Part shown: in pieces, positions 18,419 to 32,365 of the stretch | Numbering within the stretch: position 1 is the first letter of the stretch | Layout: each line of letters begins with the position of its first letter | Source: Verrucomicrobiota bacterium | GTDB lineage: Bacteria > Verrucomicrobiota > Verrucomicrobiia > Opitutales > Opitutaceae | Direction: 5' to 3' | NCBI GenBank assembly: GCA_030601755.1 | Contig: JAUWBF010000033.1 | Span: 1 to 35,758, forward strand | Length of the DNA: 35,758 nt | Notes under the pieces: generated by a model | What the model saw: the letters and a program-made list of their open reading frames with translations, nothing else | What the model was told of the DNA's origin: nothing | Databases searched by the model: none | Program-made: the position numbers and the translations under genes

Positions 18419-21400
18419 TCAGTTGCCGTTTTGTCCCGGTGAGGCCCGGGTTTCCAGAATCTGCAGGTCAGTGTTGGGGATGAACCAAAATCCCTGCATG
18501 CCGCGTCCGGTAATCACAAGACCCTGCTCGGTGGCAATGAGCCCCTTGGGGTCAACCAAGGGGAAGCGCATGACATTCGATGAGTGTCCAGCCGCACGTG
18601 CACGCTCATCCGAGCCGGCAGGCCAGTCAAAATGGAGCGGCTTTATCGAACTGCCGCTTGAGTCAACGCGGACCAGCCACGCCTCCGATGCGCCCCACGG
18701 CGAGTTTCGCGAGGCCCATCCCAGTATGTCCAAGCCTTCATTGCGCCAAGCGGCGACGTAGGTATTCGCCGGCAGCTCCTCAAGCTCCTTTGGATATGTG
18801 AATCGCACCTGGCCTGAGTTTACCTGTTCCGCAGGGTGGAGGAGCAAGAGTTCATCCCCTTCGGTTTCCAAAAACTCAGCCCTGACCACCGTGTGCCGGT
18901 ATCCTTCGCGGTGTTTGGTGCCGATGAGCAGTCCGGGAACGCTGGTGAGTTTAAGATTGCCGGACGGGGATCGTAGCGTGGGGCCACCGGTAACGCTGTT
19001 GAGGAATTTTGTCGGCGCGCCCCAAGCGCCGATGATGACGCCTCCGTTGCGCGCCGGAGACACCGAGAAGGGTTCGCCTGCGAGTGTGGAGTCCAGCGGG
19101 CTGACTGCCGGACGCCTCCGGGAAGACCCGATTAATTCGCAGCCTAGATCCGGTCTTATCCTATAAAGCGCATTGCCCTCTGTCCCCTTCACATGACCGT
19201 TGCGAACAGGCTCTCCGGAAACGGCCCAAAGGCTTTCGCCGGCAACTCCGATTTGGTAACGTGCGGCGGGCAAATTGAGTTTTTCCCAGCGCGTCTGATC
19301 CACGCTCAGAACCCATACGCCGCGATCCGCCATGATGGCAAAGCGCTGCCCCCAGACGACAAGCTGGTTTCCGATGGCCCTCTCCGGACGATTATCCGGG
19401 CTGACCACCTCGGTCCGCTGGCTCGCCGGATCAATCTTCCACAGTCTGGCGTGATTTGAATCCAGAACCCAGAGGTGCCCGTCATGCCAGACTGCGGACT
19501 CGTCGCAAAACCCGATTGATTCGCGCAAGCCGTCAGGCTTGTGCTCTCCGGCGATCCAGAGGGATTTGGCGATCAGAGCACCTTCGGTGTTTATGACAGG
19601 CTTGAGTCCCGGGAATTTTTGCAAAATGGACGATCTGGCGGCATTGATGCCGGAGCGTTCCTCAGGGAAAGCAGGCTGTCTGGACTGTCTTGCATCCAGG
19701 GCCGCCAGCAGCGCCATCGCCTGGTCGTCACGCGCGTTAAGTTTGTAATCGGAAAGAGGCACCCATGCGCAGGAAATGATCGTGGAGGATAACGGCGCGT
19801 CCGTCTCAAGCAGTGACAGGAAAACATCCACCAGCTTTTGCTGCGCTGATGCGAGTTCACGCGAGGAATTCACTTCGCGCAAAGGTCGGATGAATTCCTC
19901 AAAGATCGCCTCTCCGTAGGGCCCTGCCAGTGCTTCGGGATTCTCCGAAAGAAAATCAATCATTCTGACCGTGAGGGCGAATCGGTCCCTTTGGTCCGCC
20001 GTCGATTGCCAGCGCAATGCAAGGCTGTCGGCGCGGTTCAGTGGAGACGGGCTGCGTGCCAGCTCCTCCATGAATCCCGCCCACATTTCACGAGCCATCG
20101 TTTCGTCGCGAGCGAAGAGTCGAGGTATATGACTGCCCCAGGGGAAATCCGCCTTCGGCGCCGTGCCGGTCAGAAACGGAGGATGTGGACTGTCCAAATA
20201 GGCGAGCTCTGCGCGAATCTCCTTGGGCCAAGCGGGGGCGCCGACATCGAAATCGGGACTCAGGACCATGCGATAAAACGCTATGGTCTCCTCAGGCGTA
20301 TCGTTCCAGTAAGCTGCGAATTGAGTGAGATAGATAAAAAATCTCAACCGCAGACGGCCCAATGATCCCGCCTGCAAAAGCTTCACATTGCGCTGGATCG
20401 CCGTGCGGAGTCCGTGGATCGCCTCGGCCGTCATTTCATTGCGGTCCGAATCTCGGGCAGCTCGCAGCAAGCGGAGTTCGGTATACAAGGAATACACGCC
20501 CAGATTTGCGGGGTGTTCGAGAGTCCACCATTCGGGAGGCGTTTGGGTGGGATAGTCATTCCAGTAATCGCCCGCCAGCCACATGGCCTCGGTCGCAGCG
20601 GATACCCTTGCGGCCAGCTCGGACGGCTCAAGGAACTCCACCTTACCTCCGTCCATGGAGCTGGGACGACGCAGGTCATCCGGATATGCGCACATTGCCG
20701 CGGCCTGCACGCGAAGCATCTCGGCCTCTCGCTTGTTGCTCACCCCTAGCGCCAGCGCCGATTCAGTTGCCTGCCAGGCCTCGCGGGTTAATCCGTGTTT
20801 CAACATCCATTCTGCCTCGGCCAAAAACGCATCCGCTTCGGTTTCGTTCCCGCTTGCGACTGCGACTTTCCGGCTGTCCGCCACAACTCGCTCTACAATC
20901 GCATCGGCCAGATCTCCGCTTGTATCGCCTTCTGCCACTACAAAAGCCTCGGCCCCCTCCGCATCTCGGAGTCGCACCCTTGCGTGCAGCCGGCCTCCTT
21001 CCGATGACACGCTTCCATCGATGATTCGCGCTGCGTTCCAAAACGGGCTTTCTTCCGCGACGAGTGATTTTTCGAACACCAGGTCGCTCATTCTCCAACG
21101 CTCCAGGACGACCGCGCCACGCGACTGCAAGCGAGTCGCCAGCATAAGATTCAACGCACGCTCCGCCGAACGGTTCTCAGCCGAGTCGGTCACGAAACGC
21201 AATCCCGGCAGACTGATGCGCGGTCGCGACGGATCGGCTGCGGAGCCAAGCAGTGGTTGAGTCCGCGTCGCGATCCAGCGCGCCGTTTCCTCGACTGGCA
21301 TCTTTGGCACCTCCAACACCAGCATCGTTGCGCCCGAGTGACAGTCGACAATCCGCACCACGCGCCGATCTCCTGCGCGCTCCACGATCACTGCCGCATC

Positions 21401-21655
21401 CGCCCCGATCAGCTTCAGATTTCCGTCCGCCATCAATCTCTCTGCAGTGATCTTCGGCAAATCTGTCCGGGATAAAATTTGCACCTGGGTGAATTTTGTA
21501 ACCAGCAACGCATCCAGGTCGCTGTCATCGACGAATACTGCCGCGCGTGGAAGCTTGTGGTCCAAATGCCCGACCGTATCTGGCAGATCTGTCGATGCGC
21601 GCACGGACAAGCCGCCAACGGCCATCAGGAAAATAAAAACCGGGAGTAGTTTCAT
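18419..21655 (-). CDS. Large exported protein, CsgG-like N-terminal modules and propeller-like C-terminus
   Basis: A 1078-residue secreted protein, the last gene of the long minus-strand array. It has a signal peptide (MKLLPVFIFLMAVGGLSVRA). Residues about 30-260 contain two consecutive units resembling CsgG/TolB-N nucleotide-free folds: DDSDLDALLVTKFTQVQILS then RTDLPKI, followed by SAERALNLMLATRLQSRGAV then VLERWRMSDL. A helical middle part (about 270-680) has repeat-like segments (FLAEAEWMLKHGLTREAWQA). The C-terminal third reads like propeller blades (HDGHLWVLDSNHARLWKIDP, then WGQRFAIMADRGVWVLSVD). I chose the ATG at 21655 over one at 21670. Its bases are visibly less GC-rich than the flanking genes (one 60-base line, 20341-20400, has 34 G/C). 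A 100-base gap separates it from the upstream hydrolase gene. Function unknown. Confidence 0.75.
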   Translation of the reverse strand: MKLLPVFIFLMAVGGLSVRASTDLPDTVGHLDHKLPRAAVFVDDSDLDALLVTKFTQVQILSRTDLPKITAERLMADGNLKLIGADAAVIVERAGDRRVVRIVDCHSGATMLVLEVPKMPVEETARWIATRTQPLLGSAADPSRPRISLPGLRFVTDSAENRSAERALNLMLATRLQSRGAVVLERWRMSDLVFEKSLVAEESPFWNAARIIDGSVSSEGGRLHARVRLRDAEGAEAFVVAEGDTSGDLADAIVERVVADSRKVAVASGNETEADAFLAEAEWMLKHGLTREAWQATESALALGVSNKREAEMLRVQAAAMCAYPDDLRRPSSMDGGKVEFLEPSELAARVSAATEAMWLAGDYWNDYPTQTPPEWWTLEHPANLGVYSLYTELRLLRAARDSDRNEMTAEAIHGLRTAIQRNVKLLQAGSLGRLRLRFFIYLTQFAAYWNDTPEETIAFYRMVLSPDFDVGAPAWPKEIRAELAYLDSPHPPFLTGTAPKADFPWGSHIPRLFARDETMAREMWAGFMEELARSPSPLNRADSLALRWQSTADQRDRFALTVRMIDFLSENPEALAGPYGEAIFEEFIRPLREVNSSRELASAQQKLVDVFLSLLETDAPLSSTIISCAWVPLSDYKLNARDDQAMALLAALDARQSRQPAFPEERSGINAARSSILQKFPGLKPVINTEGALIAKSLWIAGEHKPDGLRESIGFCDESAVWHDGHLWVLDSNHARLWKIDPASQRTEVVSPDNRPERAIGNQLVVWGQRFAIMADRGVWVLSVDQTRWEKLNLPAARYQIGVAGESLWAVSGEPVRNGHVKGTEGNALYRIRPDLGCELIGSSRRRPAVSPLDSTLAGEPFSVSPARNGGVIIGAWGAPTKFLNSVTGGPTLRSPSGNLKLTSVPGLLIGTKHREGYRHTVVRAEFLETEGDELLLLHPAEQVNSGQVRFTYPKELEELPANTYVAAWRNEGLDILGWASRNSPWGASEAWLVRVDSSGSSIKPLHFDWPAGSDERARAAGHSSNVMRFPLVDPKGLIATEQGLVITGRGMQGFWFIPNTDLQILETRASPGQNGN

Positions 21656-21755
21656 CGTTCTCAATCGCACGGGACCAAGTCGATGCGGGTGACGTCTGGC
21701 CGCGCCACTATCAGCGAGATAAAGGATGCGAGCCGATACAGCGAGGGCTGGATAT

Positions 21756-22526
21756 TCATGGCGATGCTGTGTTGTCCGGGCGTTGGGCGACGACCTTCTC
21801 GATCCATTCGCGGATGACCTGGCGCGCGTCGTTATTCAAACCATGCCCGGCCTTGGGCACGCCGATGAAGGTGGCGTCGGCTCCGGATCGGTGGAGGTTC
21901 CAGTTGAGCCAGCCACGATAGACGATGCTGGTGCTCTCTTCGCCGTAGACGACCAGCATGTGCTTGCCCTTGGCGTTGGGCAGGTCGTTGGTCAACGGCT
22001 GCGCGCCTCCTTCGTGAATGATAAACGTGGTGAAATAGTCCGCGAAGCCGGACCATGCCCGGTCCAGACCGTAGGCGATGTAGTGGCCGCCGCTGCTGGT
22101 GCCGGCGACCAGCCGCAGGTTCGGATCGATGTTGGGGACGAGGGTCTTGACGCGATCGAGCATCACCCGATGAAAGTCCCAATAGGAGTCGACTTTGCCT
22201 TCCTTCGCCGCGAGGCGTGGCAAATGGCCGTTCGGGTATGGCAGGGCCACCACCACAAACCGCTCGGTATCGACCATAGCGGACAAACCGGCGACTGCAT
22301 TGGAGCCCCGGCCTCCGCCAAACCAGACGAACAACGGCGCGGGAGTTCCCGGGGCGTAGGTCGCCGGGATGCCGACTTCGCAGGCGGCGGGCTGGTGGTC
22401 GTGCATCTCCCCGAGTTCCGGAAAATCGAGCGTGACCACCGTGCCGGGAACGATGTCCGGACCGGGCTTCTCGACGGCGAGAAGAGGCACAAGACCAAGC
22501 AGGAAAATCAGGGGGAGCCGAGTCAT
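21756..22526 (-). CDS. Secreted alpha/beta hydrolase, second of a tandem pair
   Basis: A 256-residue exported hydrolase of the PHB-depolymerase/feruloyl-esterase-like type. A short signal peptide (MTRLPLIFLLGLVPLLAVE) is followed by PGTVVTLDFPELGEMHDH and an oxyanion-type stretch LFVWFGGGRGSN. The nucleophile is S144 in AGTSSGGHY, and the catalytic His is probably H228 in PKAGHGLNND. It is a close paralogue of the next gene upstream: in the block from PGTV to GGRGS, 34 of 49 aligned residues are identical. The ATG at 22526 is 8 bases after that gene's stop; a TTG at 22538 overlapping the stop is an alternative. Substrate unknown; a polyester, an acetylated polysaccharide or a peptide are all possible. 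Confidence 0.82.
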   Translation of the reverse strand: MTRLPLIFLLGLVPLLAVEKPGPDIVPGTVVTLDFPELGEMHDHQPAACEVGIPATYAPGTPAPLFVWFGGGRGSNAVAGLSAMVDTERFVVVALPYPNGHLPRLAAKEGKVDSYWDFHRVMLDRVKTLVPNIDPNLRLVAGTSSGGHYIAYGLDRAWSGFADYFTTFIIHEGGAQPLTNDLPNAKGKHMLVVYGEESTSIVYRGWLNWNLHRSGADATFIGVPKAGHGLNNDARQVIREWIEKVVAQRPDNTASP

Positions 22527-22534
22527 CGTGTTTT

Positions 22535-23296
22535 TCAATGTTGGTGGTGTTTGGCGACCAAGTCTCCGATCCAGTGATTAATGGCGGCTCGCCCGTCCGG
22601 TCCGAGTCCATGGGCCGAGTCGGGGAGGGCGATAAACGTGGCCAGCGCTCCGGAGCGCTGGAGGTTCCAGCAAAACCAGCCGGACCAGACGATGCTGGGC
22701 GATTTCTGCCCGTAGACGACCAACACCTGTTTGTCCTTCGCGTTGGGAATGTCGTTTGCGACCGGCTGCATGCCGCCCTCGTGGATGACGAAGGCGGTGA
22801 AGTAGTCGGCGACCCCCGGCCAGGCCCTGTCCAGGGCGAATCCGATCAGATGCCCTCCGTTGCTCGTGCCGGCGACCACACGCAGGGCCGGGTCGATGTT
22901 GGGCACGCGTTCGCGCACGCGCTCCAGCATGGCGCGTTGAAATTCCCAATGGGCTTCCAGAGTGCCGTCCTTGGCGGCGGCGCGGACGTCCTTGCCGTCC
23001 GGATACGGAAGGGCGACGACCACGAATTTGTCGGAATCCACCAGATCGTGAGCGTTCGCGACCAGATGCGAGCCGCGGCCGCCGGAGAGCCAGACCAACA
23101 GGGGGCTGGGTTTTCCCGGGGCGTAGTCGCGCGGTATGCTGACCTCGCAGGCCGCGTCGAGCCCATGGTGCATCTTCCCGAGTTCGGGAAACTCCAGCGT
23201 AAGGACGGTGCCGGGGAGCGGATCGGTGGGGGATGCGTCCGCGGCCAGACGGGCGGCGAACACGGTCAGTGCGGTAATCAGCAGGTGGAGCTTCAT
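22535..23296 (-). CDS. Secreted alpha/beta hydrolase, first of a tandem pair
   Basis: A 253-residue exported hydrolase. The signal peptide is MKLHLLITALTVFAARLAAD. The nucleophile is S145 in VAGTSNGGHLIG, and the likely catalytic His is H229 in PDSAHGLGPDG. Conserved segments shared with the downstream copy include FPELGKMH, AACEV, VWLSGGRGS, FVVVALPYP, VPNIDP, DRAWPGVADYF, HEGGMQP and VVYGQKS. Its ATG overlaps the TGA of the 1326-residue gene (ATGA at 23293-23296), a strong sign of cotranslation. It is like the hydrolase domain at the end of that upstream protein, so the operon encodes three related domains in a row. The longer open frame continues upstream to 23728 but only inside the neighbouring gene. 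Confidence 0.83.
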   Translation of the reverse strand: MKLHLLITALTVFAARLAADASPTDPLPGTVLTLEFPELGKMHHGLDAACEVSIPRDYAPGKPSPLLVWLSGGRGSHLVANAHDLVDSDKFVVVALPYPDGKDVRAAAKDGTLEAHWEFQRAMLERVRERVPNIDPALRVVAGTSNGGHLIGFALDRAWPGVADYFTAFVIHEGGMQPVANDIPNAKDKQVLVVYGQKSPSIVWSGWFCWNLQRSGALATFIALPDSAHGLGPDGRAAINHWIGDLVAKHHQH

Positions 23297-26200
23297 GGGG
23301 ATAGTTGACGGGCAAGAAACATCCGAGCGGCTTCCTCGGCCTCGGGGGCCGGGGTGTGGTTGGGGTCGGGCCATTCCGACCATTCCACGGGAACGCCCGC
23401 GTGGCGGAGCCGTGCGACGAGGTCGACTTGCTGGATGTATCGACGCCGGGCCCGGGGCATGTCGATGTCGTCGAGCGGATTGGCCGCGACCCAGTAGCGG
23501 ATGTGGCGTTGTGAGGAGGGGGCGGAGAGGCCGGTCTCGTTCAGTCGCGCCACGCCCCAGTTGCTGTTGATCACGCTGACGGCGGCGACACGGTCCGGTT
23601 TCCATGCGGCGAAGTGGGTGGCGAAGCCTCCTCCGCTGGTTTGCCCGTGGACGAGCAGCTTGTCGGCGTTCAGCGGGATGCGCCTGCCGATTTCGTCGAT
23701 GGCGCGCAGCACGGCGTCGCCGGACCACGCTTGGGCGTAGCGCTGGTGGGTGAATGCATGGTCGTGCCGAAACGCATAGTCGCTGGTGGTGAACCGCGGG
23801 GCGACGAGCACGAGGTGATGTTCGTCGGCGAACCGGCTCCAGGCGCTGCCGGCGGAGAGATGATGGAGTGGATCCTCGTTTGTGGTGGGCGCGAGTATGA
23901 GGACGCGGGGCGCCGCCCGGGCGCTTTGATCAAGTCCGGCCGGGGGCTGGCGGTAGTAGACGCAGAGGGAGGGGTTGTCGGCGTTGACGGTGGGCACGGA
24001 AACATGACTCACGCGATCGGGGAGACTGGCGCGGGCCGGATCGAAGCGCAGGTCGACGACCAACCGGGATAATCGCGCGGCCAGATCGGCTTCGTTGTGC
24101 ATGTAGTCGTGGCTCTGATGGTAGCAATCGAGCGGTTCGTTGGCGACGAGCGCCAAGCCGCGGGCCGCATTTTCCAACGCCTCGGGTTTGCGGCCGGAGA
24201 CATGCTGCGTCTGGGCGAGTCGAAACAGGGAGTTTGCGACCAATGTCCGACGCTGTCTGTCCGCATCGGCATCAACCGGCAGGGCCGACAGGCGACGGAA
24301 GAGGCTCTCGGCGGCGTGGTATTCACGCCCGTAGAGAAGGGCCAATGCCAGGTCGAAATGCTGGTTGGCCTGCTTCGCGTCGGGGTCCTCGGGCATGGCT
24401 TGCAGGATCGGCTCAAGGCAACGGACGAGCAGGGCTGCGCGGTCGACGGCTGAAAAGGCCTTCTCGGTTTCCCAGCGCAACGCGAGCCACCACCAGTTGT
24501 ATGGATTGGCCGGTTTGCCGTTTTGGGCGATGAAGCCGCTTTCGCGTCGGCGAAGTTTGTCCTCGATGACCGCCGTGTCCGGCAACCACAGGAGCGAGTC
24601 ATCCAGCAGGTCCGCGTGCCTGGCCATGACCAGCTCGCGGGTGATTTCCCTTAGTTCGTGGGTGTTGCTGTTGTAGTTGGTGACGGGGCGGACGCTTTTG
24701 ACTTGGTCAAATGCGGCGAGCATGCGGTCGCGAATCTGGTCGAACCGCCGTTCGTCGACCACCTCGGACAAGCGATTGTTGCCGATGCCCGCGAGCAAAC
24801 CCATGGCCATGTATTGGGTGTGACGCAGTGAATCATAATCGGTGAGCGTGGTGAATTCGTGCACGATGTTGTCGACGGCATAGTCGATGCAGGCGAACCA
24901 GTGGTCGTTTCGCACGGCTTCGCCGTCGGGCCCCTCCAAGAGCCCGACCGCCGCGGCCTCCGCATTGGTCAATGCGCGCACGATCCGGTTGGTGAGCGTG
25001 CGGGTGCGTGGAAACTGCGAGAGCCATGCCGGCTCGCAGAAACGTTCGGATTTGAGATAGGCGTTCAGCGTGAGTTGCGCGCGGGCATTGCGGGTGAGGT
25101 CGGCGCCGCTCAGACCCAGCAGGGGGTTTGGGAGCAATCGGTAACGCTTGAACTCGAGCCGCAGTCTGCCGTCCGCCGACCAGACGAGATCTCCCGCCTC
25201 GAAGGGGATGGCGGCCTTTGTATCCGGGGCGGCTCCGCCGTCCTCGTGGTTGCCGGTGGCGATCTCCGCCAAGAGCGCGAGCCCGGTGATCGCCTTGGAA
25301 AGCTCGTCCCGGATGTCCGGCATGAGGTCCGGCCGGGCCTTGAGCTCCTCGCCGAGGTCACTGCACATGCGGACGGTTTCGGCAGGCGGGCGTTCCGCCT
25401 GTCCGTAAAAAACCAAGTAGTAGCGGGCGAGCAGGCCCGGCCCGTCGTCGGCCCGCTGGCGGGCGAGGTCCTCCAACGCGCCAAGCGGTTCCAGCGATCG
25501 GCCGGAAAACACACGGGCTCCGTCGTGCGGATCGCGATGGTCCAGAGCCCGCATCAGCTCAAGCCAGCGGCGTTGGGTATGGCCGGCGGGAAGCCGCGAT
25601 ATCAGATAGTCGCGACGGCCGTGGTCGATGAAGCTGGCGAGCGGTTCGTCATGGAGGCCGGCGCCTCGGGTCGCTGCCAACGGAGAGTCTGGGGCGAGCC
25701 GCATGAGCCGCAGCCGCAGAACCTCGGCCTCGTCGCCATCGGCCGCGATCAGCCTTGCGGTGACTTCCTCCGGTGACTCGGCCATGGCGGGGCCGTCTGC
25801 TTTGCGCGCCTCGAACTTCGGGGTCGTCAATTGGTCGGGCTTGGGCCAATGCCTCAGCCAGTCGTTCAGATCGTCGTTACGGGTCGCGGCATCGTCATGC
25901 AAATCCAGGCTCCGGGTCAGGGGCTCCAGCAGTCCGAACGAGTCGCGCAATGTCCATCGGATCATCAGCCGGTCCTCGCCTTGAACGAGCCTGCCGCTGA
26001 GCATGAATCGCGTGAGCATGCTGGGGGCGTTGGAAATGTCCCTGCCGGGTTCGGCGTTTTCCAGACTCATCCAGTCGTATTCACGGCGCAGGCGTTGCAG
26101 TTGCTCGGGCAGTCGCAAGCCGATCTCCGGACGGCGGGCAAGGGCGCTGGCCGTGACCGCCGACAGGTCCAAGGCGAGCGGCTGAAGCGAATCGGGCGAC

Positions 26201-27273
26201 TGTATGCCCAGAAAGGCGACGCCGTCGGTGGCGGTGACGTGGCCGGTGGCGGCATGCAGGTTTTCCAGAAACTCCGTGTCTAGGTAGCGTCTGATGGCGC
26301 TGCCGACGGTTTGCATTCCGAGCGCATCATAACTGCGCGCTGCCCACTCGTAGGCCTGGCGAAACCGGCCGTTGAGCCGGTAGGCGCGGGTAAACTCGAT
26401 GATCGCCCCGGCATAGTCGCCGCCGTCATGGCGTCCGATTCCTCGATGATAGGGCGCGAGGGCTTCGATCTCAACCTGGGGCAGGTAAACGGAGAAGGGT
26501 TGCTCCTGCGCGCGCCCGAGCAGCGGGAGCACCCAGGATTGCAGGCGATTGGTCTCGTCGGGGTCGTCGGCCTGAAGGGGAGTCACACCGAGCACCACGC
26601 CGTCGCGGGCGCGCACCAGTCTGGCGTCGCGGGCGGAGAGTTCTATCCAGTGGTCGAGACCCAGCAGCATGCCGTCGGCGGGCGCGGCGCGAAAACCGCG
26701 GGCGGCGTCGTTACCTTCGACGGCAAGCGCTTGGGTGAGGGTGCGGTCGACGACCAGAATGTTCTCATCGGCCAACGCACTGCGCAGTCGGGCGGCGAGC
26801 GTGAAAAGCGCGGTGTCGCCTATGGCGGAATCGGCTTCCACCACGGCGATGCGAGAGCCCCGTTTCTGGGAATCTCGCGAGGCCGCGATGTTGTCGAGCA
26901 GATGGGCGGCGGCGGTGGCCAGGGGAGCGCAGTCGGCTTGGCTGACGGCATCCGCGGCCAGCGAACCGAGGTCACGGCCGGACGCGGCGTCAATCAGGGT
27001 GATGATCCAGTGTCGGTCGGTGACCTGACGGAAGTGCAGGTAGTGGTCGACGTTGACCGGCCGTGCCGGGCTCGCCGTGGTCTCGCGCTCGCGCCACAGG
27101 CGGGCGAGTTCGGTGCGCTCGACGATCTCGGTCGCGGGGCGGACCTCGGTGAGGGCGGCGGTGAGGACGTCTTGCCAGAGTGAGGTGTCGCCGTCACCCG
27201 ACACCGAAACGGCCACGCGCTGGGCCGTGCAGGTTGCGGATGTAACCAGCAGTAGGAATGCAAACCAACGCAT
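23293..27273 (-). CDS. 1326-residue fusion: CsgG-like modules, helical repeats, alpha/beta hydrolase
   Basis: A very large exported protein. A signal peptide (MRWFAFLLLVTSATCTA) is followed by two tandem CsgG/TolB-N-like units (about 18-130 with LWQDVLTAALTEVRPATEIV; about 138-260 with FTLAARLRSALADENILVVD then RTLTQAL). A TPR-like segment comes next (about 280-340, HDGGDYAGAIIEFTRAYRLN), then a long mostly helical region. An alpha/beta hydrolase domain fills the last 225 residues. There the nucleophile is about S1213 in LLVHGQTSGGGFATHFAAWK and the probable His is H1306 in WPDPNHTPAPEAEE. I chose the ATG at 27273; earlier codons overlap the upstream FxLYD gene and are Pro/Ser-rich. Its TGA overlaps the ATG of the next hydrolase gene. 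Start-to-stop spacing from the FxLYD gene is 19 bases. Confidence 0.8.
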   Translation of the reverse strand: MRWFAFLLLVTSATCTAQRVAVSVSGDGDTSLWQDVLTAALTEVRPATEIVERTELARLWRERETTASPARPVNVDHYLHFRQVTDRHWIITLIDAASGRDLGSLAADAVSQADCAPLATAAAHLLDNIAASRDSQKRGSRIAVVEADSAIGDTALFTLAARLRSALADENILVVDRTLTQALAVEGNDAARGFRAAPADGMLLGLDHWIELSARDARLVRARDGVVLGVTPLQADDPDETNRLQSWVLPLLGRAQEQPFSVYLPQVEIEALAPYHRGIGRHDGGDYAGAIIEFTRAYRLNGRFRQAYEWAARSYDALGMQTVGSAIRRYLDTEFLENLHAATGHVTATDGVAFLGIQSPDSLQPLALDLSAVTASALARRPEIGLRLPEQLQRLRREYDWMSLENAEPGRDISNAPSMLTRFMLSGRLVQGEDRLMIRWTLRDSFGLLEPLTRSLDLHDDAATRNDDLNDWLRHWPKPDQLTTPKFEARKADGPAMAESPEEVTARLIAADGDEAEVLRLRLMRLAPDSPLAATRGAGLHDEPLASFIDHGRRDYLISRLPAGHTQRRWLELMRALDHRDPHDGARVFSGRSLEPLGALEDLARQRADDGPGLLARYYLVFYGQAERPPAETVRMCSDLGEELKARPDLMPDIRDELSKAITGLALLAEIATGNHEDGGAAPDTKAAIPFEAGDLVWSADGRLRLEFKRYRLLPNPLLGLSGADLTRNARAQLTLNAYLKSERFCEPAWLSQFPRTRTLTNRIVRALTNAEAAAVGLLEGPDGEAVRNDHWFACIDYAVDNIVHEFTTLTDYDSLRHTQYMAMGLLAGIGNNRLSEVVDERRFDQIRDRMLAAFDQVKSVRPVTNYNSNTHELREITRELVMARHADLLDDSLLWLPDTAVIEDKLRRRESGFIAQNGKPANPYNWWWLALRWETEKAFSAVDRAALLVRCLEPILQAMPEDPDAKQANQHFDLALALLYGREYHAAESLFRRLSALPVDADADRQRRTLVANSLFRLAQTQHVSGRKPEALENAARGLALVANEPLDCYHQSHDYMHNEADLAARLSRLVVDLRFDPARASLPDRVSHVSVPTVNADNPSLCVYYRQPPAGLDQSARAAPRVLILAPTTNEDPLHHLSAGSAWSRFADEHHLVLVAPRFTTSDYAFRHDHAFTHQRYAQAWSGDAVLRAIDEIGRRIPLNADKLLVHGQTSGGGFATHFAAWKPDRVAAVSVINSNWGVARLNETGLSAPSSQRHIRYWVAANPLDDIDMPRARRRYIQQVDLVARLRHAGVPVEWSEWPDPNHTPAPEAEEAARMFLARQLSP

Positions 27274-27292
27274 GGCGTCGATGACGGCGCGG

Positions 27293-27865
27293 TTACTCGA
27301 CGATGCGCAGGTCGACGACCGTGACGACGGCGGAGGCGGCCTTGCGGGAGGCGAGCACCTCGGGCTCCTCACGGAACTCGCCGAGGTCGCGTTTGATTTC
27401 GAACCCGAGCTCGGCGCCGGGCTTCAAGGTGCCCCGCAGTTGCGAGAAGGTGGAGCTGACGTCGATGAGCTTGCCGGTGGCGTCCTTGAAGGAGACGTTG
27501 AAGTTCACGTCGCTGATGGTGCGGTCGGAGTCGTTGCGCAGGGTGCCGATGACGCGTTCCTGGTGCTTTTGCTGGCCGGCGACGATGCTCTGGTTGGTGA
27601 TCACGAGCTTCTCGATGACGGCGAGCTCGGCTTTGGCTTTTTCGTTCTGGCCGGAGTTGAACCCTTCCTGGATGCCGCCGGACACTGATGACGAGAGGCC
27701 CTCGGCAATGCGGGTGACGGCGGTCTTGCCGTCGGCGTCCTTGGCGGCGGTGGCCTTTTCGAGTTCGGCGATGATGTCGTCGACTCCCGAGGAGGGCTGG
27801 AGCATGGCGCCGGCTGCGACGATGGCGCTTGCGATGATGAGGGCGGGGATGAGGTTGTGCTTCAT
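27293..27865 (-). CDS. Exported FxLYD-domain protein
   Basis: A 190-residue protein with an N-terminal signal or anchor helix (MKHNLIPALIIASAIVAAGA). Residues about 30-95 are helical and possibly coiled coil (VDDIIAELEKATAAKDADGK, then KAKAELAVIEKLVITNQS). Residues about 100-165 match the FxLYD pattern, an immunoglobulin-like extracellular module: ERVIGTLRNDSDRTISDVNF, then VSFKDATGKLIDVSS and LKPGAELGFEIKRD. The ATG at 27865 is preferred over a TTG at 27877. It sits 23 bases after the CsgG gene and 19 bases before the 1326-residue gene, so it is an internal operon member. It probably acts in the periplasm as a scaffold or partner. No enzymatic role is visible. Confidence 0.78.
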   Translation of the reverse strand: MKHNLIPALIIASAIVAAGAMLQPSSGVDDIIAELEKATAAKDADGKTAVTRIAEGLSSSVSGGIQEGFNSGQNEKAKAELAVIEKLVITNQSIVAGQQKHQERVIGTLRNDSDRTISDVNFNVSFKDATGKLIDVSSTFSQLRGTLKPGAELGFEIKRDLGEFREEPEVLASRKAASAVVTVVDLRIVE

Positions 27866-27888
27866 AAATCGGAACAATGGCGGGGAGG

Positions 27889-28824
27889 TTACTTGACCAG
27901 CAGTGGCACGAGGCGGTCGGCGAGTTTGAGGGCGGCGTTTTCGAGCGCCTTCTTGCCGGCGCTGTGCTCGGCGATGTCGATGGCGACGTCCATCTGGCGG
28001 TCGGTGCTCACGAACTTGCCGCCGGCGTCCTTGACGACGACCTCGATGCGGGCACGACAGGAGACGAGATTGCCGCGGCGCATGCCGAGTTCGCTGAAGG
28101 CCTCGCCGGTGATGGTGACGAGATCGGTGCGCGAGCGGCTGTCCTCAACGGGCACCACCTCGAAGCCGACCTCCTTCAACACGATCATGAGCTCGGTCTG
28201 CGCGGCCGGGTCGATCACGGGGCGAGCGAGGTGTTGCTCGGTGATGGCGATGCTGACGGGGGGTAGTCTTTTACCGGATACGAGCGCTTTCAGACGCTCG
28301 ACCCGGGCGTCCCAGGTCTCGACGTCGGCGACAAGGGCGTCGCCTTGCTTGGCGAGCACGTCGGCGATTTTCCCGGAAAGGTCGGCGACTGGCGCGTCGA
28401 GGTCGGTCAGCGAACGTCCGGTGACGAGCGCGCCGAAGACACGGCCGGTCTCGGTGCTCATGACCTTGGCGACGATGTAGCCCTTGCCGCCGGTCTCGAA
28501 GACGCGCCCGGACACGATGACCTTGGCGCCGACGAGCTGACCGATCCTGGCGGCGGTGTCGGGGGTGACGTTGCCCGAAAGGCCGAGTTCCTGCTCGCCG
28601 AGGAGCTTGTCGATCTCCTGTCGCTCGACGAGGAACACGTCGGGCGAGGCGGAGAGGTGGGCGTTGAGCAGCACGGCGACTTCGGCGCCGGTTTTCTCGA
28701 GGGAGCGTTCGCCGGCTTGGAAATCGAAGACGGCGAGCGGGAGCGGGTCGGCGGCGTGGGCGGCGGTGGCGATGACGCAGGTCGTCAGCGCGACGAGCGA
28801 ACGGATGGTGGTGGACAGTTTCAT
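27889..28824 (-). CDS. CsgG-family periplasmic/outer-membrane protein
   Basis: A 311-residue member of the CsgG/HfaB-like group. A signal peptide (MKLSTTIRSLVALTTCVIAT, cleavage AHA-AD) has no lipobox Cys at its end, unlike E. coli CsgG. The CsgG core is clear: LPLAVFDFQAGERSLEKTGA, EVAVLLNAHLSASPDVFLVE, RQEIDKLLGEQELGLSGNVT, AARIGQLVGAKVIVSGRVFE and VAKVMSTETGRVFGALVTG. The second half (VSIAITEQHLARPVIDP, EVGFEVVPVEDSRSRTDLV, MDVAIDIAEHSAGKKALENA) looks like a further LPS-assembly- or GNA1162-like domain. CsgG itself forms the curli secretion pore, but many CsgG-domain proteins outside curli systems are regulators or assembly factors. There are no curli subunit genes here. It lies 29 bases after the secreted 259-residue gene. 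Confidence 0.88.
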   Translation of the reverse strand: MKLSTTIRSLVALTTCVIATAAHAADPLPLAVFDFQAGERSLEKTGAEVAVLLNAHLSASPDVFLVERQEIDKLLGEQELGLSGNVTPDTAARIGQLVGAKVIVSGRVFETGGKGYIVAKVMSTETGRVFGALVTGRSLTDLDAPVADLSGKIADVLAKQGDALVADVETWDARVERLKALVSGKRLPPVSIAITEQHLARPVIDPAAQTELMIVLKEVGFEVVPVEDSRSRTDLVTITGEAFSELGMRRGNLVSCRARIEVVVKDAGGKFVSTDRQMDVAIDIAEHSAGKKALENAALKLADRLVPLLVK

Positions 28825-28853
28825 GGCGGGCGGTGGTGAGTGGTGAGGGTGGA

Positions 28854-29633
28854 TCAGCGGACGGCGGGCGTGAGTGCGGTGAGCAGGAGTTGGAACAACG
28901 TCTCCCGCGCCTGCGGATTGTCGGCGAGGAGCGGAAAGAGCGGCAGGGTGAGTTTGCAGACGACGCCATCGGCGCGCGTGGTGACGTGCACGCCGGGCAG
29001 GAGCGCGGGGTCGTCGACGGCGACGATCAATTGGCCGGTCGCGTCGGATGAGGTCAGGCGGCGCCAGTCGTCGGGATCGGAGAGCTCTCCCAACAAGATT
29101 TCGTTGTCGCGCAACCGGCGCGGGGCGTCCGGCCCGACGTCCTCGTAGCGCAGGCCGAGGCTGTCGAGGTGATCGCGCAGCTCGGAGGATCGTCCGCAGA
29201 CGAGCAGTTGCCGCCGGGAAGACTTGAGCAGATGGGCGAGGTCGGGCCGGTCCGCGGCTTTGGCGGCGGGGGGAAACACCATGATCGACCAAATCGTTTG
29301 GTCCGAGAGTCGGAGAAGCAGTCGGGTGATCCGGGCGACCTCCGGCGCGGTGAACCGCACCAGGCACAGGCGCGCGTCGCGGGGCGACGTTTCCAAGGTC
29401 ACGGGCACATTGAGCGGCGCGGCCACCACGCCGCCGATTTGCACCAGCTGCGCGCCGAGGGAGGCCGGATCGCTGCCGGGCATGAGCAGCATCTCCATGA
29501 CGACGTGTTCGCCGGATTGCACGGGCAGGGCGGACGAGGTCCAGACGCGCTCGGGCGTGCCGACGAGTTTGAGCGCCTGGGCTTCGACAGCCAAGGGAAC
29601 GGCGAGCAAGGCGGCGAGCAGGAGCGGCTTCAT
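28854..29633 (-). CDS. Secreted protein of unknown function in the sigma operon
   Basis: A 259-residue exported protein (signal peptide MKPLLLAALLAVPLAVEA). The first half looks like a beta-sandwich (LVGTPERVWTSSALPVQSGE, then VVMEMLLMPGSDPASLGAQL). The second half alternates strand and helix (RRQLLVCGRSSELRDHLDSL, DNEILLGELSDPDDWRRL, GQLIVAVDDPALLPGVHV). I recognise no family and see no catalytic signature. Its ATG overlaps the TGA of the anti-sigma-position gene by four bases (29630-29633), so translation is coupled. Being exported, it could sense or relay an envelope state to the membrane partner upstream; this is inference from gene order only. Confidence 0.72.
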   Translation of the reverse strand: MKPLLLAALLAVPLAVEAQALKLVGTPERVWTSSALPVQSGEHVVMEMLLMPGSDPASLGAQLVQIGGVVAAPLNVPVTLETSPRDARLCLVRFTAPEVARITRLLLRLSDQTIWSIMVFPPAAKAADRPDLAHLLKSSRRQLLVCGRSSELRDHLDSLGLRYEDVGPDAPRRLRDNEILLGELSDPDDWRRLTSSDATGQLIVAVDDPALLPGVHVTTRADGVVCKLTLPLFPLLADNPQARETLFQLLLTALTPAVR

Positions 29634-30232
29634 AGCGCGGAGAGAGGAGTCGCGCGGATGTTCCAGCCGGCGACGGGGCGCGGGGCGGAGGTCGACCAGA
29701 CGAAGTCGGCTCCGGCGATGACCACCTGGCCGTCGGCGGTGAGCAGCGGCGAGAAATCGAGCGTGCCGGCGGCGAGCCTCAGGCTGACGTCGCGTCCGCT
29801 GTAGCTGAGCACGCGCAGGCGTTGGTTGTCGCGGGAGAGCTCGATGACCACGGCCTGGTCGGCGGCGTTCACGGCGGATCCGCGCTCGGCGAGGTCGAGC
29901 TCGGTGGCTCCGTCACGGATGACGACGGCGTTGATGCGTCCGGGGAACACCTCGTCGAGCTGCGCGAGCAACTTCAGGTCGGTGGCGGAGAGCGCGGGCA
30001 CCGACGCCTCCGGCGCGGGGGCGCGGAGTGCGAGCAGGACGACGAGGCAGGCGGCGGAAAACGCGGCCGCGACGGGGAACATCCAGGCCGTCCGTATCCG
30101 ATTTATTGATACGTAGGCGCGGGAGGAGGCGGCCGCGATGGTCGCCCGATGCAGCGCGCGGTCCGCGGCCTCGGGGGAGGGAGCGGGCGGGCGCAGGGCG
30201 GACAGGCGGTTCTTGAGATCGTGGTCAGTCAT
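29630..30232 (-). CDS. One-TM protein in anti-sigma position
   Basis: A 200-residue membrane protein whose ATG overlaps the sigma factor stop by eight bases (ATGACTGA, 30225-30232). This is the classic arrangement of an ECF sigma/anti-sigma pair. The cytoplasmic N-terminus (MTDHDLKNRLSALRPPAPSP, 1-48) is short. One transmembrane helix spans about 49-69 (WMFPVAAAFSAACLVVLLAL). The periplasmic part (about 72-200) is a small beta-rich domain (AVNAADQAVVIELSRDNQRL, then DVSLRLAAGTLDFSPLLTAD). The zinc-binding H-x3-C-x2-C motif of ZAS anti-sigma factors is absent; the sequence has almost no Cys. Anti-sigma function is therefore inferred from position and topology, not from a recognised domain. Confidence 0.75.
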   Translation of the reverse strand: MTDHDLKNRLSALRPPAPSPEAADRALHRATIAAASSRAYVSINRIRTAWMFPVAAAFSAACLVVLLALRAPAPEASVPALSATDLKLLAQLDEVFPGRINAVVIRDGATELDLAERGSAVNAADQAVVIELSRDNQRLRVLSYSGRDVSLRLAAGTLDFSPLLTADGQVVIAGADFVWSTSAPRPVAGWNIRATPLSAL

Positions 30233-30818
30233 GGGAACCGAGCAGTTTGCGGAGTTTGGATTTTGCGCGAAACAACCGCCAGGAGACGGTCGACTCGGCG
30301 CAGCCGAGCACGCGGGCGGCCTCGGCGTGGTTCAGGTTTTCGTAAAACACGAGGTTGATGACCTCGCGGTGGGCCAACGGGAGGGCGCCGAGCGCGGCGC
30401 GGATTTCGTCGTGCCGGTCGTGCGCGGCGTCGGGACGGGAGGCCATCCCGGCGGGCATGGCCTCGGCCTGCAGGGCGGTGTCGAGGCGTTCGCGGCGCTG
30501 CCGTTGGCGCAGTCGGTCGCGGGCGCGGTTGGTCGCGATGGCGTAGAGCCAGTTTTTGAAGGAGGCCTGGCCGCGAAACGATCCGAGGGCCCGGGCGGCC
30601 TGGATGAAGGTTTCCTGCGCGATGTCCTCGGCCTCGGCGCCGCACAGGCAGAGGCGGTAGGCGAAGGCGTGGATGTTGCCGTAGTGGCGGTTGAAGAGGG
30701 TCGAAAAGGCCTCCGGGCAACCCTCTGCCGCCGGCTGTAGCAGGGCGGCATCGCTCTCGGTGAGAGAACTGCCTTCGCTGCGCGAGGGAGGTAGGGTTGT
30801 GGAGGCGGCCGATGGCAT
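30225..30818 (-). CDS. ECF sigma-70 family factor
   Basis: A 197-residue extracytoplasmic-function sigma factor that would direct RNA polymerase to its own promoter set. Region 2 (about 36-106) shows FNRHYGNIHAFAYRLCLCGA, AEDIAQETFIQAARAL and KNWLYAIATNRARDRLRQ. Region 4 (about 138-192) shows LGALPLAHREVINLVFYENL, then NHAEAARVLGCAESTVSWRL followed by FRAKSKLRKLL. No region 3 or 1.1 is present, as expected. The start is the ATG at 30818 (MPSAASTTLPPSRSEGSSLT). The open frame continues far upstream only as antisense-like sequence over the pseudopilin and PEP-CTERM genes. It heads a run of nine genes ending at 18419 and probably drives its own operon. Confidence 0.94.
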   Translation of the reverse strand: MPSAASTTLPPSRSEGSSLTESDAALLQPAAEGCPEAFSTLFNRHYGNIHAFAYRLCLCGAEAEDIAQETFIQAARALGSFRGQASFKNWLYAIATNRARDRLRQRQRRERLDTALQAEAMPAGMASRPDAAHDRHDEIRAALGALPLAHREVINLVFYENLNHAEAARVLGCAESTVSWRLFRAKSKLRKLLGSHD

Positions 30819-30842
30819 GGGGCTGGATTGCAGGTGTAGACG

Positions 30843-30870
30843 CCGCAAGACAGCCGATCCTTGGACTTTT
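30843..30870 (-). promoter_or_regulatory. Candidate promoter of the sigma operon
   Basis: Read on the minus strand, the leader holds GTCCAAGGATCGGCTGTCTT followed by GCGGCGTCTA, 25-50 bases before the sigma ATG, preceded by a run of eight A. The spaced GTCC...TGTCTT/CGTC elements resemble an ECF-type -35/-10 pair and would fit autoregulation. Weak evidence: one site, no second copy found in the window. Confidence 0.25.
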
Positions 30871-30898: not shown

Positions 30899-31624
30899 TC
30901 AGAGCGGGACGGCGCCGGGGTTTTCGCCGGCGTCGACGCGGCGTTTGAGGTCGCGCGCCTCGATGTTCTGGACGTGGCCGTCGGCGAAGAGGTAGTTGGC
31001 CGAGCCGGACAGGCGGTCGGCGGCGCGCTCGCCGCGGCGGTGGCGGTCGACCTCGACGTCGGCGAGCACGCCGAACCAGTTCGTCCATTCGGCGCAGTGG
31101 GCGTGGTCCCAGCCCCGGCTTGGGCGGCGGTCGTCGGACGCGTTGAAGAGGATCATGGTCCGGCCGGGGTGCGGGATCAGGTTGACGTGGTTGTAGGGGG
31201 GCATGCCGTCCTCGGGGTCGAAGACGATGTCGTTGAGCGTGTAGCTGGTGAGGCCGTCGGTCTCGAGGATGCGCTTTTGGCGGGTTTCGTTGTCGGCCGG
31301 GCAGACTCGCACGGCGTCCGTGTCGCCGAGGTAGGGCGCGAGTTGGTAGATCCAGCTTTCGTAACGGCCGTTCGCCATGGACGCGGTGGTGTGCGCGGTG
31401 GGCGGGAGCTTGCCGCGGTGATCGGCCGCGTAGGCGAGCAGGGCCACGCCGATCTGGCGCATGTTGGACGAGCACTGGGCGCGGTGGGCCGCCACGCGGA
31501 CCTGGCCGAGCACGGGAATCGTGATCGCGGCCAGGACGCCGATGACGGCCACCACGACGAGCAGCTCCACCAGCGTGAAGCCACGCCGGTGGAGCCGGGG
31601 AGTTGTTGGGCGGAAGCCGGGCAC
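30899..31624 (-). CDS. Pseudopilin with prepilin cleavage motif and H-X9-DG type C-terminus
   Basis: A 241-residue type II secretion/type IV pilin-like protein. The prepilin peptidase site is HRRG-FTLVE (cleavage after G15, with E20 at mature position 5), followed by the hydrophobic helix LLVVVAVIGVLAAITIPVLG. The C-terminal part has ANYLFADGHVQN, the H-X9-DG type signature common in Planctomycetes and Verrucomicrobia. The start appears to be the GTG at 31624, 9 bases after the stop of the PEP-CTERM gene; no ATG lies upstream in frame before that gene. These pseudopilins are abundant and mostly of unknown role. The tight link with the PEP-CTERM gene suggests shared expression. Confidence 0.88.
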   Translation of the reverse strand: MPGFRPTTPRLHRRGFTLVELLVVVAVIGVLAAITIPVLGQVRVAAHRAQCSSNMRQIGVALLAYAADHRGKLPPTAHTTASMANGRYESWIYQLAPYLGDTDAVRVCPADNETRQKRILETDGLTSYTLNDIVFDPEDGMPPYNHVNLIPHPGRTMILFNASDDRRPSRGWDHAHCAEWTNWFGVLADVEVDRHRRGERAADRLSGSANYLFADGHVQNIEARDLKRRVDAGENPGAVPL

Positions 31625-31633
31625 GGGATGAAA

Positions 31634-32365
31634 TCAGGCGCGGCGTTGGCGACGCAGGGCGACGAGGCCGAGCGAGGCGAGACCGGCGAGCGCGGCGGCC
31701 GAGGAGGGCTCGGGAATCGCGCCGGCCTGGAAGCCGAACGTGCCGGTGCCGGTGACGAGACCGTCGACGATGTGCTCGCCGGTCCAGGTGAAGGTCAGCT
31801 CGTAGTAGCCGGGATCCGAGAAGTAGAAGGCGGCGTGGGCGTGGCCCGAGGCGACGTCGAAGATCCACTCGTTGGTCGAGCCGCCGAAGGTGGAGAACAA
31901 CGCGCTGCCGCCGCTGATGAGCGCGAACTCGCCGGGGTTGGCGCCGCTCCAGCCGGTGAGCTCGATGGTGATGGACTCGCCGACCCAGTCGGTCTCGATG
32001 CCGACCTCCTCGGTGGCCCAGCCGAGGTTGGGCTGGAAGGTGCTGTTGCCCATGCGGAACACGTCGGTGCCCTCGGCGACGCCCAGCCAGGTGGCGGAGC
32101 CGGTCGGCGCGGCGAAGGTGGAGGTGGTCCAGGCGATCAGTCCGTTGGGCGCGTATTCGGCTTCCGATGACAGGGTGACGCCGTCGACGACCGCGCCGGA
32201 GCCGATGTGCCAGTGGGGTTCGAATTCGCCGGAGCCGACTTCGTAGGCGATGCCGATGTCGCCGTGACCGGCGGTGTAGTAAACGGCCTGGGCCTGGACG
32301 GACGCGGCGAGGACGAGGGACGCGGTCGCGAGGAGCGCGGAGGAGAGGGAGGACTTGAAAAACAT
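31634..32365 (-). CDS. Choice-of-anchor M domain protein with PEP-CTERM sorting signal
   Basis: A 243-residue surface protein. It has a signal peptide (MFFKSSLSSALLATASLVLA, cleavage near VQAQA). The body follows the choice-of-anchor M / TIGR03769-like pattern: AGHGDIGIAYE, then HWHIGSG, EAEYAPNGLIAW, ATWLGVAEGTDVFRMGNS, GESITIELTGW, ASGHAHAAFYFSDPGYYELT and a final GTGTFGFQAG. The C-terminus is a PEP-CTERM tail: IPEPSSAAALAGLASLGLVA plus RRQRRA, which is recognised by exosortase and replaced by another anchor. In Actinobacteria the related domain occurs beside metal-type ABC transporters, which makes a metal-acquisition role possible here. His residues are frequent (GHGDI, HWHIG, GHAHAAF), consistent with metal contact. 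Confidence 0.9.
   Translation of the reverse strand: MFFKSSLSSALLATASLVLAASVQAQAVYYTAGHGDIGIAYEVGSGEFEPHWHIGSGAVVDGVTLSSEAEYAPNGLIAWTTSTFAAPTGSATWLGVAEGTDVFRMGNSTFQPNLGWATEEVGIETDWVGESITIELTGWSGANPGEFALISGGSALFSTFGGSTNEWIFDVASGHAHAAFYFSDPGYYELTFTWTGEHIVDGLVTGTGTFGFQAGAIPEPSSAAALAGLASLGLVALRRQRRA

What the first reader, a model, noticed from the sequence alone, without database searches (positions are those of the whole stretch)
18419..30818. A nine-gene ECF sigma operon built around CsgG-like proteins and secreted hydrolases
Seen: nine minus-strand genes in a row, several joined by 4-8 base start/stop overlaps. They encode an ECF sigma factor, a one-TM partner, a secreted protein, a CsgG-family protein, an FxLYD protein, a CsgG-like/hydrolase fusion, two hydrolases and a second large CsgG-like protein. 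Known: CsgG domains belong to export or assembly of surface material. Inference: this is a self-regulated envelope module that exports or remodels a surface polymer. No curli subunit gene accompanies it, and I know of no named system with this composition.
Basis: partly seen in the sequence, partly recalled or inferred. Interest (0 to 1): 0.75.

Follow-up and report, generated by a model that had tools for sequence, protein, structure and literature searches.

The report
Self-regulated envelope module of Verrucomicrobiota
A bacterial gene cluster that appears to switch itself on through its own dedicated regulator and to make large proteins for the space between the two cell membranes is one form of a module found across a whole phylum, and it does not look like the curli-type export machine its annotation suggests.

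Summary
The nine-gene array is real and its coordinates are exact. It is one elaborate form of a module found across Verrucomicrobiota: ECF sigma, one-TM anti-sigma, secreted g3, two-domain g4, then usually giant secreted proteins. g4 is in 64 of 387 phylum genomes. An ECF sigma gene lies within 4 kb upstream on the same strand in 26 of 56 testable loci (36 within 9 kb, 20 without), never within 4 kb on the other strand or downstream. Module sigmas form almost one clade. CCAAGGWW-N14-CGTCW occurs 9 times in 1.29 Mb of loci, each time just upstream of a module sigma; in the window genome the only intergenic strict copy found is the operon's own. Self-regulation is thus well supported. 'CsgG' misleads: g4 and the giants carry TolB-N/LpoB/CsgG-type soluble domains, modelled for g4 without pore hairpins, and the genome has no curlin. 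Hydrolases are a local add-on; the one fused to g6 lacks the catalytic serine in 5 of 5 copies. Most likely an inducible periplasmic envelope-maintenance module; polymer export is not supported.

The parts
30838..30864 (-). Putative autoregulatory ECF-type promoter CCAAGGAT-N14-CGTCT, first base 46 nt upstream of the sigma ATG
   Evidence: 9 of 9 strict matches over 1.29 Mb lie upstream of module sigma genes; in the window genome the other 2 strict matches are inside genes
30225..30818 (-). g1: ECF sigma factor, 197 aa
   Evidence: Pfam Sigma70_r2/r4; groups with 45 other module sigmas, apart from 26 of 27 ECF paralogues
29630..30232 (-). g2: one-TM anti-sigma-like protein, 200 aa, short cytoplasmic part (about 50 aa), conserved extracytoplasmic domain
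   Evidence: No Pfam hit; 28 of 29 proteins that follow module sigmas join its profile; TM peak from residue 50
28854..29633 (-). g3: secreted core protein, Ig-like domain plus alpha/beta domain
   Evidence: 36 of 48 proteins immediately upstream of g4 join its profile; AF2 pLDDT 87.2; Ig-like matches; of 33 members one hits DUF4350 and one LacZ_4
27889..28824 (-). g4: secreted two-domain protein; residues 25-160 TolB-N-like, about 170-311 CsgG/PelC/LptE-like
   Evidence: Pfam CsgG partial; AF2 pLDDT 79.7; TolB Z 13.9, rmsd 2.5, 122 aligned; CsgG Z 10.9, rmsd 3.1, 135 aligned for domain 2
27293..27865 (-). g5: FxLYD-like small protein with a hydrophobic N-terminus; local addition
   Evidence: NCBIfam NF038353 22.7 bits, cut-off 23; no similarity to the proteins at the corresponding place in G267 and TAV5
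23293..27273 (-). g6: giant, two TolB-N/CsgG-type domains, TPR region, C-terminal alpha/beta hydrolase domain
   Evidence: full-length relatives in TAV5 (two), TAV2 and G267
23296..24021 (-). g6 hydrolase domain with Thr (residue 1212) in place of the nucleophile Ser; His 1306 kept
   Evidence: 5 of 5 fusions have GxTxG (4) or GxGxG (1); 7 of 7 free-standing relatives whose alignment reaches the place have Ser
22535..23296 (-). g7: secreted alpha/beta hydrolase with GTSNG motif
   Evidence: Pfam Esterase below cut-off; alignment
21756..22526 (-). g8: secreted alpha/beta hydrolase with GTSSG motif
   Evidence: alignment
18419..21655 (-). g9: giant, two TolB-N/CsgG-type domains (about residues 36-265), helical/TPR middle, probable C-terminal beta-propeller
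   Evidence: 46% identical full-length relative in TAV5; profile comparisons; SGL 4.8e-4, below cut-off

Best explanation
The array is an autoregulated ECF sigma/anti-sigma unit that makes a periplasmic assembly of TolB-N-type domains. Shown by sequence: a nearly monophyletic sigma group, a one-TM partner, a conserved promoter at the sigma gene, a core g1-g4, and giants built as two TolB-N/CsgG-type domains + TPR + propeller, ankyrin or hydrolase parts. Inferred: an envelope disturbance acts on the extracytoplasmic domain of g2 (g3 may modulate it, as RseB does for RseA) and frees the sigma, which transcribes the operon from its own promoter. g3, g4 and the giants are exported by Sec; g4 and the giants assemble through their TolB-N-type domains into a scaffold that maintains or repairs the outer envelope. 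g7 and g8 are ester hydrolases added locally; the hydrolase domain of g6 is probably a pseudo-enzyme used for binding. The cargo after g4 is exchangeable.
For: Core order in Opitutaceae and across the phylum. Sigma within 4 kb upstream on the same strand in 26 of 56 testable loci, 36 of 56 within 9 kb, 0 of 56 on the opposite strand within 4 kb, 0 of 58 within 4 kb downstream on either strand; the sigma profile used is not blind to other ECFs: 27 of 27 paralogues score over its 25-bit limit. Sigma grouping: 2 label changes against a shuffled mean of 22.1. Promoter: 9 of 9 strict matches in 1.29 Mb at module sigma genes, reversed-pattern control 1; the site at L047 came out of the matrix scan unprompted. 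g4 fold TolB-N plus CsgG/PelC/LptE type. Both N-terminal segments of the aligned giants match g4 domain 1 (probability 99.0 and 97.1, E 5e-18 and 6e-11); other comparisons at most 4.9. PF03783 hits 14 of 42 giants. TPR and propeller matches.
Against: No expression, localisation or phenotype data exist here. 20 of 56 testable g4 loci have no sigma hit in the stretch read, among them three of the family (G129, G219, G250). g3 shows no RseB-like match, only Ig-like folds, with its second half barely tested. 'Envelope maintenance' rests on fold kinship, and this fold also serves export (CsgG, PelC, LptE). Distribution within the family is patchy (13 of 250). g9 has GC3 0.655 against 0.84-0.90 for g1-g5, so it may be a later rider. 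Several loci are cut by contig ends. Motif and sigma profile were derived from part of the same loci.
Confidence: 0.5

Rival explanations
1. A secretion or assembly apparatus for a surface polymer, with g4 as a CsgG-like outer-membrane pore.
For: PF03783 hit of g4 above the cut-off, though partial; domain 2 of g4 resembles CsgG (Z 10.9) and PelC (Z 10.7).
Against: In the model g4 is two compact domains with a longest strand of 15 residues; 62 of 65 called g4 proteins lack a lipobox-like pattern; no curlin repeat in the genome; the Pfam scan of the nine genes (g8 not scanned) shows no glycan synthase or curli partner.
Confidence: 0.12
2. An inducible nutrient system: secreted esterases (g6-g8) attack acylated polysaccharide or polyester, and the CsgG-type proteins only scaffold them at the surface.
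For: Three hydrolase domains, best profile a short-chain PHA depolymerase; one carrier, TAV5, is a termite-hindgut strain with lignocellulose-degradation genes (abstract in the listing).
Against: Hydrolase fusions were seen in 4 of the 13 family genomes that have g4, several of them cut by contig ends; two loci have nothing after g4; the fused domain lacks the catalytic Ser in 5 of 5.
Confidence: 0.13
3. A biological conflict or defence locus with a fixed sensor core and exchangeable effectors (ankyrin giants, hydrolases).
For: Variable cargo behind a fixed core; ankyrin repeats in 6 of 42 giants and in 6 of 6 proteins checked in TAV5, G264, G129, G219, G250, G259; NCBIfam lists 6 of 42 giants under MzaA of the MZA anti-phage system and under Dot/Icm ankyrin effectors, probably through the ankyrin repeats alone; lower GC3 of the cargo.
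Against: PADLOC matches none of g3-g7 and g9 and gives only a weak partial sigma hit for g1 (0.0048; g2 and g8 not scanned); the aligned giants share the same N-terminal pair and show no toxin domain by Pfam.
Confidence: 0.1
4. Only g1-g4 form a functional unit; g5-g9 are riders with functions of their own placed downstream by chance or transfer.
For: Loci that end after g4 (L041, L047); 100-nt gap before g9 and its divergent GC3.
Against: Giants with the same two N-terminal domains follow or precede g4 across the phylum; g9 and g6 relatives sit in the same cluster in TAV5.
Confidence: 0.15

Closest known systems
rpoE-rseA-rseB envelope stress unit (E. coli; recalled)
   Same: ECF sigma, one-TM anti-sigma and a periplasmic protein in that order, with a promoter at the sigma gene
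   Different: g3 matched Ig-like folds, no RseB-like one; g2 has a short cytoplasmic part; the operon carries g4 and giant TolB-N-type proteins
TolB / CpoB of the Tol-Pal system
   Same: TolB-N-type domain (g4 domain 1, Z 13.9) and, in the giants, TolB-N-type domains + TPR + propeller
   Different: PF04052 not found in the window genome; two N-terminal domains followed by TPR and propeller; no TolQRA/Pal among the nine; ECF control
CsgG (curli secretion pore)
   Same: PF03783 match above the cut-off; domain 2 of g4 has the CsgG periplasmic fold
   Different: Match covers a third of the model; no pore hairpins in the g4 model, lipobox pattern in 3 of 65 g4 proteins only, no curlin in the genome
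LpoB, FlgT, PelC, LptE
   Same: Same soluble alpha/beta domain
   Different: Those are lipoproteins or flagellar, LPS or Pel parts (recalled); none is known to me with an ECF sigma core
PorE, CpoB-TolB-Pal fusion of Bacteroidetes (PMC12204202, passages read)
   Same: TPR and TolB-like propeller in one exported protein
   Different: PorE as described there has carboxypeptidase and Pal-type parts; a TolB-N pair is not mentioned in the passages read

Membership tests
CsgG curli pore | Full PF03783 domain | tested here: inconclusive
   Above the cut-off (35.5 vs 20.8 bits) but positions 31-99 of 210 only
CsgG curli pore | Membrane-spanning beta-hairpins | tested here: not met
   AF2 model: two compact domains, longest strand 15 residues, no hairpin insert; a model only, pLDDT 79.7
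CsgG curli pore | Lipid-anchor Cys after the signal peptide | tested here: not met
   Pattern [LVI][ASTVI][GAS]C in the first 45 residues: not in the window g4; in 3 of 65 called g4 proteins; no lipoprotein predictor run
CsgG curli pore | Curlin subunit genes in the genome | tested here: not met
   PF07012: 0 matches in G000 (96% complete); control rings in E. coli only
TolB | TolB N-terminal domain fold | tested here: met
   g4 residues 25-160: the first 12 rows are TolB, Z 12.7-13.9; FlgT follows at 12.4
TolB | PF04052 (TolB_N) sequence match | tested here: not met
   0 matches in G000, window included
TolB | C-terminal six-bladed propeller in the same chain | tested here: inconclusive
   Absent from g4; the giants' profile matches 'Cake' designs (recalled to be propellers; 6tji E 5.2e-12) and YncE (0.0095); blade number unknown
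TolB | Binding to Pal and TolA | not testable with these tools
   One OmpA-domain protein lies elsewhere in G000
ECF sigma / anti-sigma pair | Sigma regions 2 and 4 only, one-TM partner gene next to it | tested here: met
   binding of g2 to the sigma not tested
ECF sigma / anti-sigma pair | ECF-type promoter at the sigma gene | tested here: met
   9 of 9 strict matches lie at module sigma genes; transcription itself not tested
Class I anti-sigma | Four-helix ASDI domain before the TM helix | tested here: inconclusive
   Only about 40-60 residues precede the TM peak in the family; no Pfam hit for g2; definition from passages of PMC7406223
rpoE-rseAB unit | RseB-like third protein | tested here: inconclusive
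   g3 model matches Ig-like folds; its alpha/beta half was barely tested

The most novel reading that the evidence does not exclude
A phylum-wide, ECF-inducible Tol-like machine. The giants are fused TolB-N / CpoB-like TPR / TolB-like propeller scaffolds which, with g4 as hub, tether or repair the outer membrane in lineages where a TolB detectable by Pfam is mostly absent (3 of 38 genomes searched, the window's own without one), and which can be re-armed with hydrolase or ankyrin modules.
Probability: 0.2. Interest if true: 0.8.

Novelty: new variant of a known kind. Interest (0 to 1): 0.6.

Why it matters
Verrucomicrobiota are abundant in soil, water and guts, but how they sense and maintain their envelope is little known. 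A conserved sigma/anti-sigma/periplasmic module with an identifiable promoter gives a direct handle: reporter fusions and deletions in a cultured Opitutaceae strain could name the signal and the function. It also warns that 'CsgG' annotations in this phylum should not be read as curli export.

Tried and rejected
Not supported: curli-like export. No support as a defence system from PADLOC; the MzaA and T4SS-effector names given by NCBIfam to 6 of 42 giants I put down to ankyrin repeats, without testing it. Rejected: hydrolases as the heart of the system, because ankyrin-type loci and loci ending after g4 lack them and the fused domain is degenerate. The RseB idea for g3 got no support from fold searches, and sequence search gave only chance-level PDB hits. 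Sequence search of the PDB with g4 gave nothing useful. A sigma-70 promoter and terminator scan found no more than shuffles, and no terminator at the end of g9. The looser promoter pattern gave 51 hits in the genome against 12 in the control; of the 30 fetched, 9 had T or A after CGTC and only the operon's own was intergenic; 21 of 51 were not inspected. The strict pattern found no further intergenic site. My first comparison set for the hydrolase nucleophile was picked by the presence of GxSxG, so I repeated it without that filter: 7 of 11 loci gave an alignment reaching the place, 7 of 7 with Ser; 4 gave none.

Dropped rows: 9 of 81 loci had no full-length g4 and were left out of the neighbourhood count; some loci come from the same genome. 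12 of 48 proteins upstream of g4 did not join the g3 family. 40 of 61 listed giants plus the two of the window were aligned, and at least one of the 42 (L103:17014-19998) visibly lacks the N-terminal domains. The tree used 27 paralogues, those among the 30 fetched of 58 matches. The one genome-contig scan used two short peptide patterns and gave one weak match outside the phylum (L046, Pusillimonas, E 6e-5), not followed; whether the module exists outside Verrucomicrobiota is open. Ten paper searches (one search was for strains) found no description of this module; only open-licence PMC papers are held, and the large ECF reclassification paper that I recalled is not.
Full report
OBSERVATION. 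The window is contig C76 of a 3.55-Mb genome, 96% complete. Genomes of its family include Opitutaceae records, so it is taken as Opitutaceae. Nine minus-strand genes run from the sigma ATG at 30818 to a stop at 18419. Three of eight junctions overlap (8, 4 and 4 nt); the others are gaps of 29, 23, 19, 8 and 100 nt.

CONSERVATION. A full-length relative of g6 is rare: of 95 genomes searched, own included, three have one (window, G005 with two, G052); G267 was added later. g4 is the better marker: 13 of 250 genomes of the family (6 of 165 good-quality ones) and 64 of 387 of the phylum (at most five candidates per genome were scored, so this may undercount). Neighbourhoods of 81 loci were read. 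In the family the order sigma, one-TM protein, g3, g4 holds in 7 of 8 loci with a sigma hit (window, L018, L042, L047, L048, L050, L055); the eighth, L058, has a truncated sigma running into a g3 fragment and looks decayed. L052-L054 have g4 without a sigma. What follows g4 differs: hydrolase fusion (window, TAV5, TAV2, G267), ankyrin giants (G264, G129, G219, G250, G259, and one in TAV5; Pfam in 6 of 6 checked), or nothing (L041, L047). Across the phylum the order recurs, sometimes with a giant between the anti-sigma and g3.

STATISTICS. Of 72 loci with a full g4, 56 have at least 4 kb upstream. In 26 an ECF sigma gene lies within 4 kb upstream on the same strand, in 36 within 9 kb, in 0 on the opposite strand within 4 kb (one at 6.5 kb, L090). 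Within 4 kb downstream it is 0 of 58 on either strand. Twenty of 56 have none. The sigma profile was built from seven module sigmas; it also scores 27 of 27 paralogues at 36-126 bits, above the 25-bit limit, so the control is not blind. g3 is one family (36 of 48 proteins immediately upstream of g4; 17 of the 48 overlap g4 by exactly 4 nt), and so is the anti-sigma (28 of 29; 24 of 29 with exactly one TM-like segment by hydropathy). A quick tree of 46 module sigmas and 27 ECF paralogues from three genomes needs 2 label changes against a shuffled mean of 22.1 (0 of 500 shuffles as low); one long-branched paralogue falls among the module sigmas. In two distant genomes the module's sigma is the best of 32 and of 11 matches to the window sigma, in the second by a small margin.

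PROMOTER. Reading the DNA before the sigma gene showed CCAAGGAT-N14-CGTCT 43-48 nt before the called start in window, L018, L042, L048, L050, L055 and L090, and at L047 with the start; L089 has a 15-nt spacer and lies 20 nt before its called start. The strict form CCAAGGWWN14CGTCW occurs 9 times in 1.29 Mb of loci, 9 of 9 within 43-129 nt of a module sigma match; the reversed pattern occurs once. The matrix came from seven loci (six of the nine plus L089). L055 and L058 had been seen before the strict pattern was written; only L047 was a clean prediction. L058 is the decayed copy. In the window genome the strict pattern with CGTCT occurs 3 times; the other two lie inside genes. Some farther sigma genes have weaker variants (for example L093, L121); most of the 46 upstream regions did not match the first search. 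Self-regulation is the best-supported functional statement, though transcription was not measured.

PROTEINS. The g4 model (pLDDT 79.7, pTM 0.54) has two alpha/beta domains. Residues 25-160 match the TolB N-terminal domain best (Z 13.9, rmsd 2.5, 122 aligned; the first 12 rows are TolB), then FlgT (12.4). Residues 170-311 match DUF330, CsgG, PelC and LptE (Z 9-11). No pore hairpins are modelled. In 42 giants aligned, two successive N-terminal segments each match g4 domain 1 (probability 99.0 and 97.1), while three other segments do not, and none matches g4 domain 2; Pfam CsgG hits 14 of 42. The giant profile also hits TPR designs and propellers in the PDB; idealised repeat proteins inflate such E-values. 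g3 (pLDDT 87.2) has an Ig-like first half and an alpha/beta second half. The hydrolase domain of g6 and its four fused relatives has Thr (4) or Gly (1) at the nucleophile position, where g7/g8-type proteins, TAV5 hydA and 7 of 7 free-standing relatives have Ser. The fused domain is therefore probably inactive; a threonine nucleophile, or the adjacent Ser in three of them, cannot be excluded.

COMPOSITION. GC3 is 0.84-0.90 for g1-g5, 0.79-0.81 for g6-g8 and 0.655 for g9; 13 flanking genes have 0.78-0.95. With the variable cargo this suggests a stable core with exchanged cargo.

MECHANISM. Shown: gene order, sigma grouping, promoter motif, domain kinship. Inferred: signal at the extracytoplasmic part of g2, release of sigma, transcription of the operon, export, assembly of TolB-N-type domains into an envelope scaffold. 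The window genome has one OmpA-domain protein (lipoprotein-like by eye) but no TolB by Pfam, and 3 of 38 genomes have a TolB_N hit. This permits, without showing it, a Tol-like role. The export reading is not borne out by its membership tests.

LITERATURE. Ten full-text searches gave no paper on this module. From passages of PMC12204202 I take the TolB two-domain description, the PorE comparison and the statement that outside Proteobacteria few tol-pal systems were documented. [quoted passage not shown] RseA/RseB facts are recalled.

VERDICT. Real, conserved and apparently unnamed; a new variant of ECF-controlled envelope modules. Function is not settled.

Noticed in passing
window 14055-15845 (+): An NMT1/THI5-like substrate-binding domain fused to a histidine kinase (HisKA + HATPase_c).
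   Followed up: no
window 30899-32365 (-): A DUF1559 prepilin-like gene and a PEP-CTERM-like protein just below cut-off lie directly upstream of the operon.
   Followed up: no
window 28500-28526 (-): A promoter-like motif copy lies inside g4 and similar ones in g4 of L048, L050 and L102, probably as a by-product of conserved codons.
   Followed up: partly
L019:5-733: In TAV5 a protein with one hydrophobic segment and a ribosomal bL12-C-terminal-like N-terminus (recalled resemblance) precedes the second hydrolase fusion.
   Followed up: no
L048:9352-10317: A second, divergent g4 paralogue lies between two giants in G264.
   Followed up: no
L058 (G259:C336) 998-2141: Promoter, truncated sigma, g3 and g4 fragments: apparently a decayed second copy of the module beside the one on G259:C77.
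   Followed up: partly
L021 (G052), about 3920-4640 (-): The anti-sigma reading frame of TAV2 appears broken by a frameshift.
   Followed up: no
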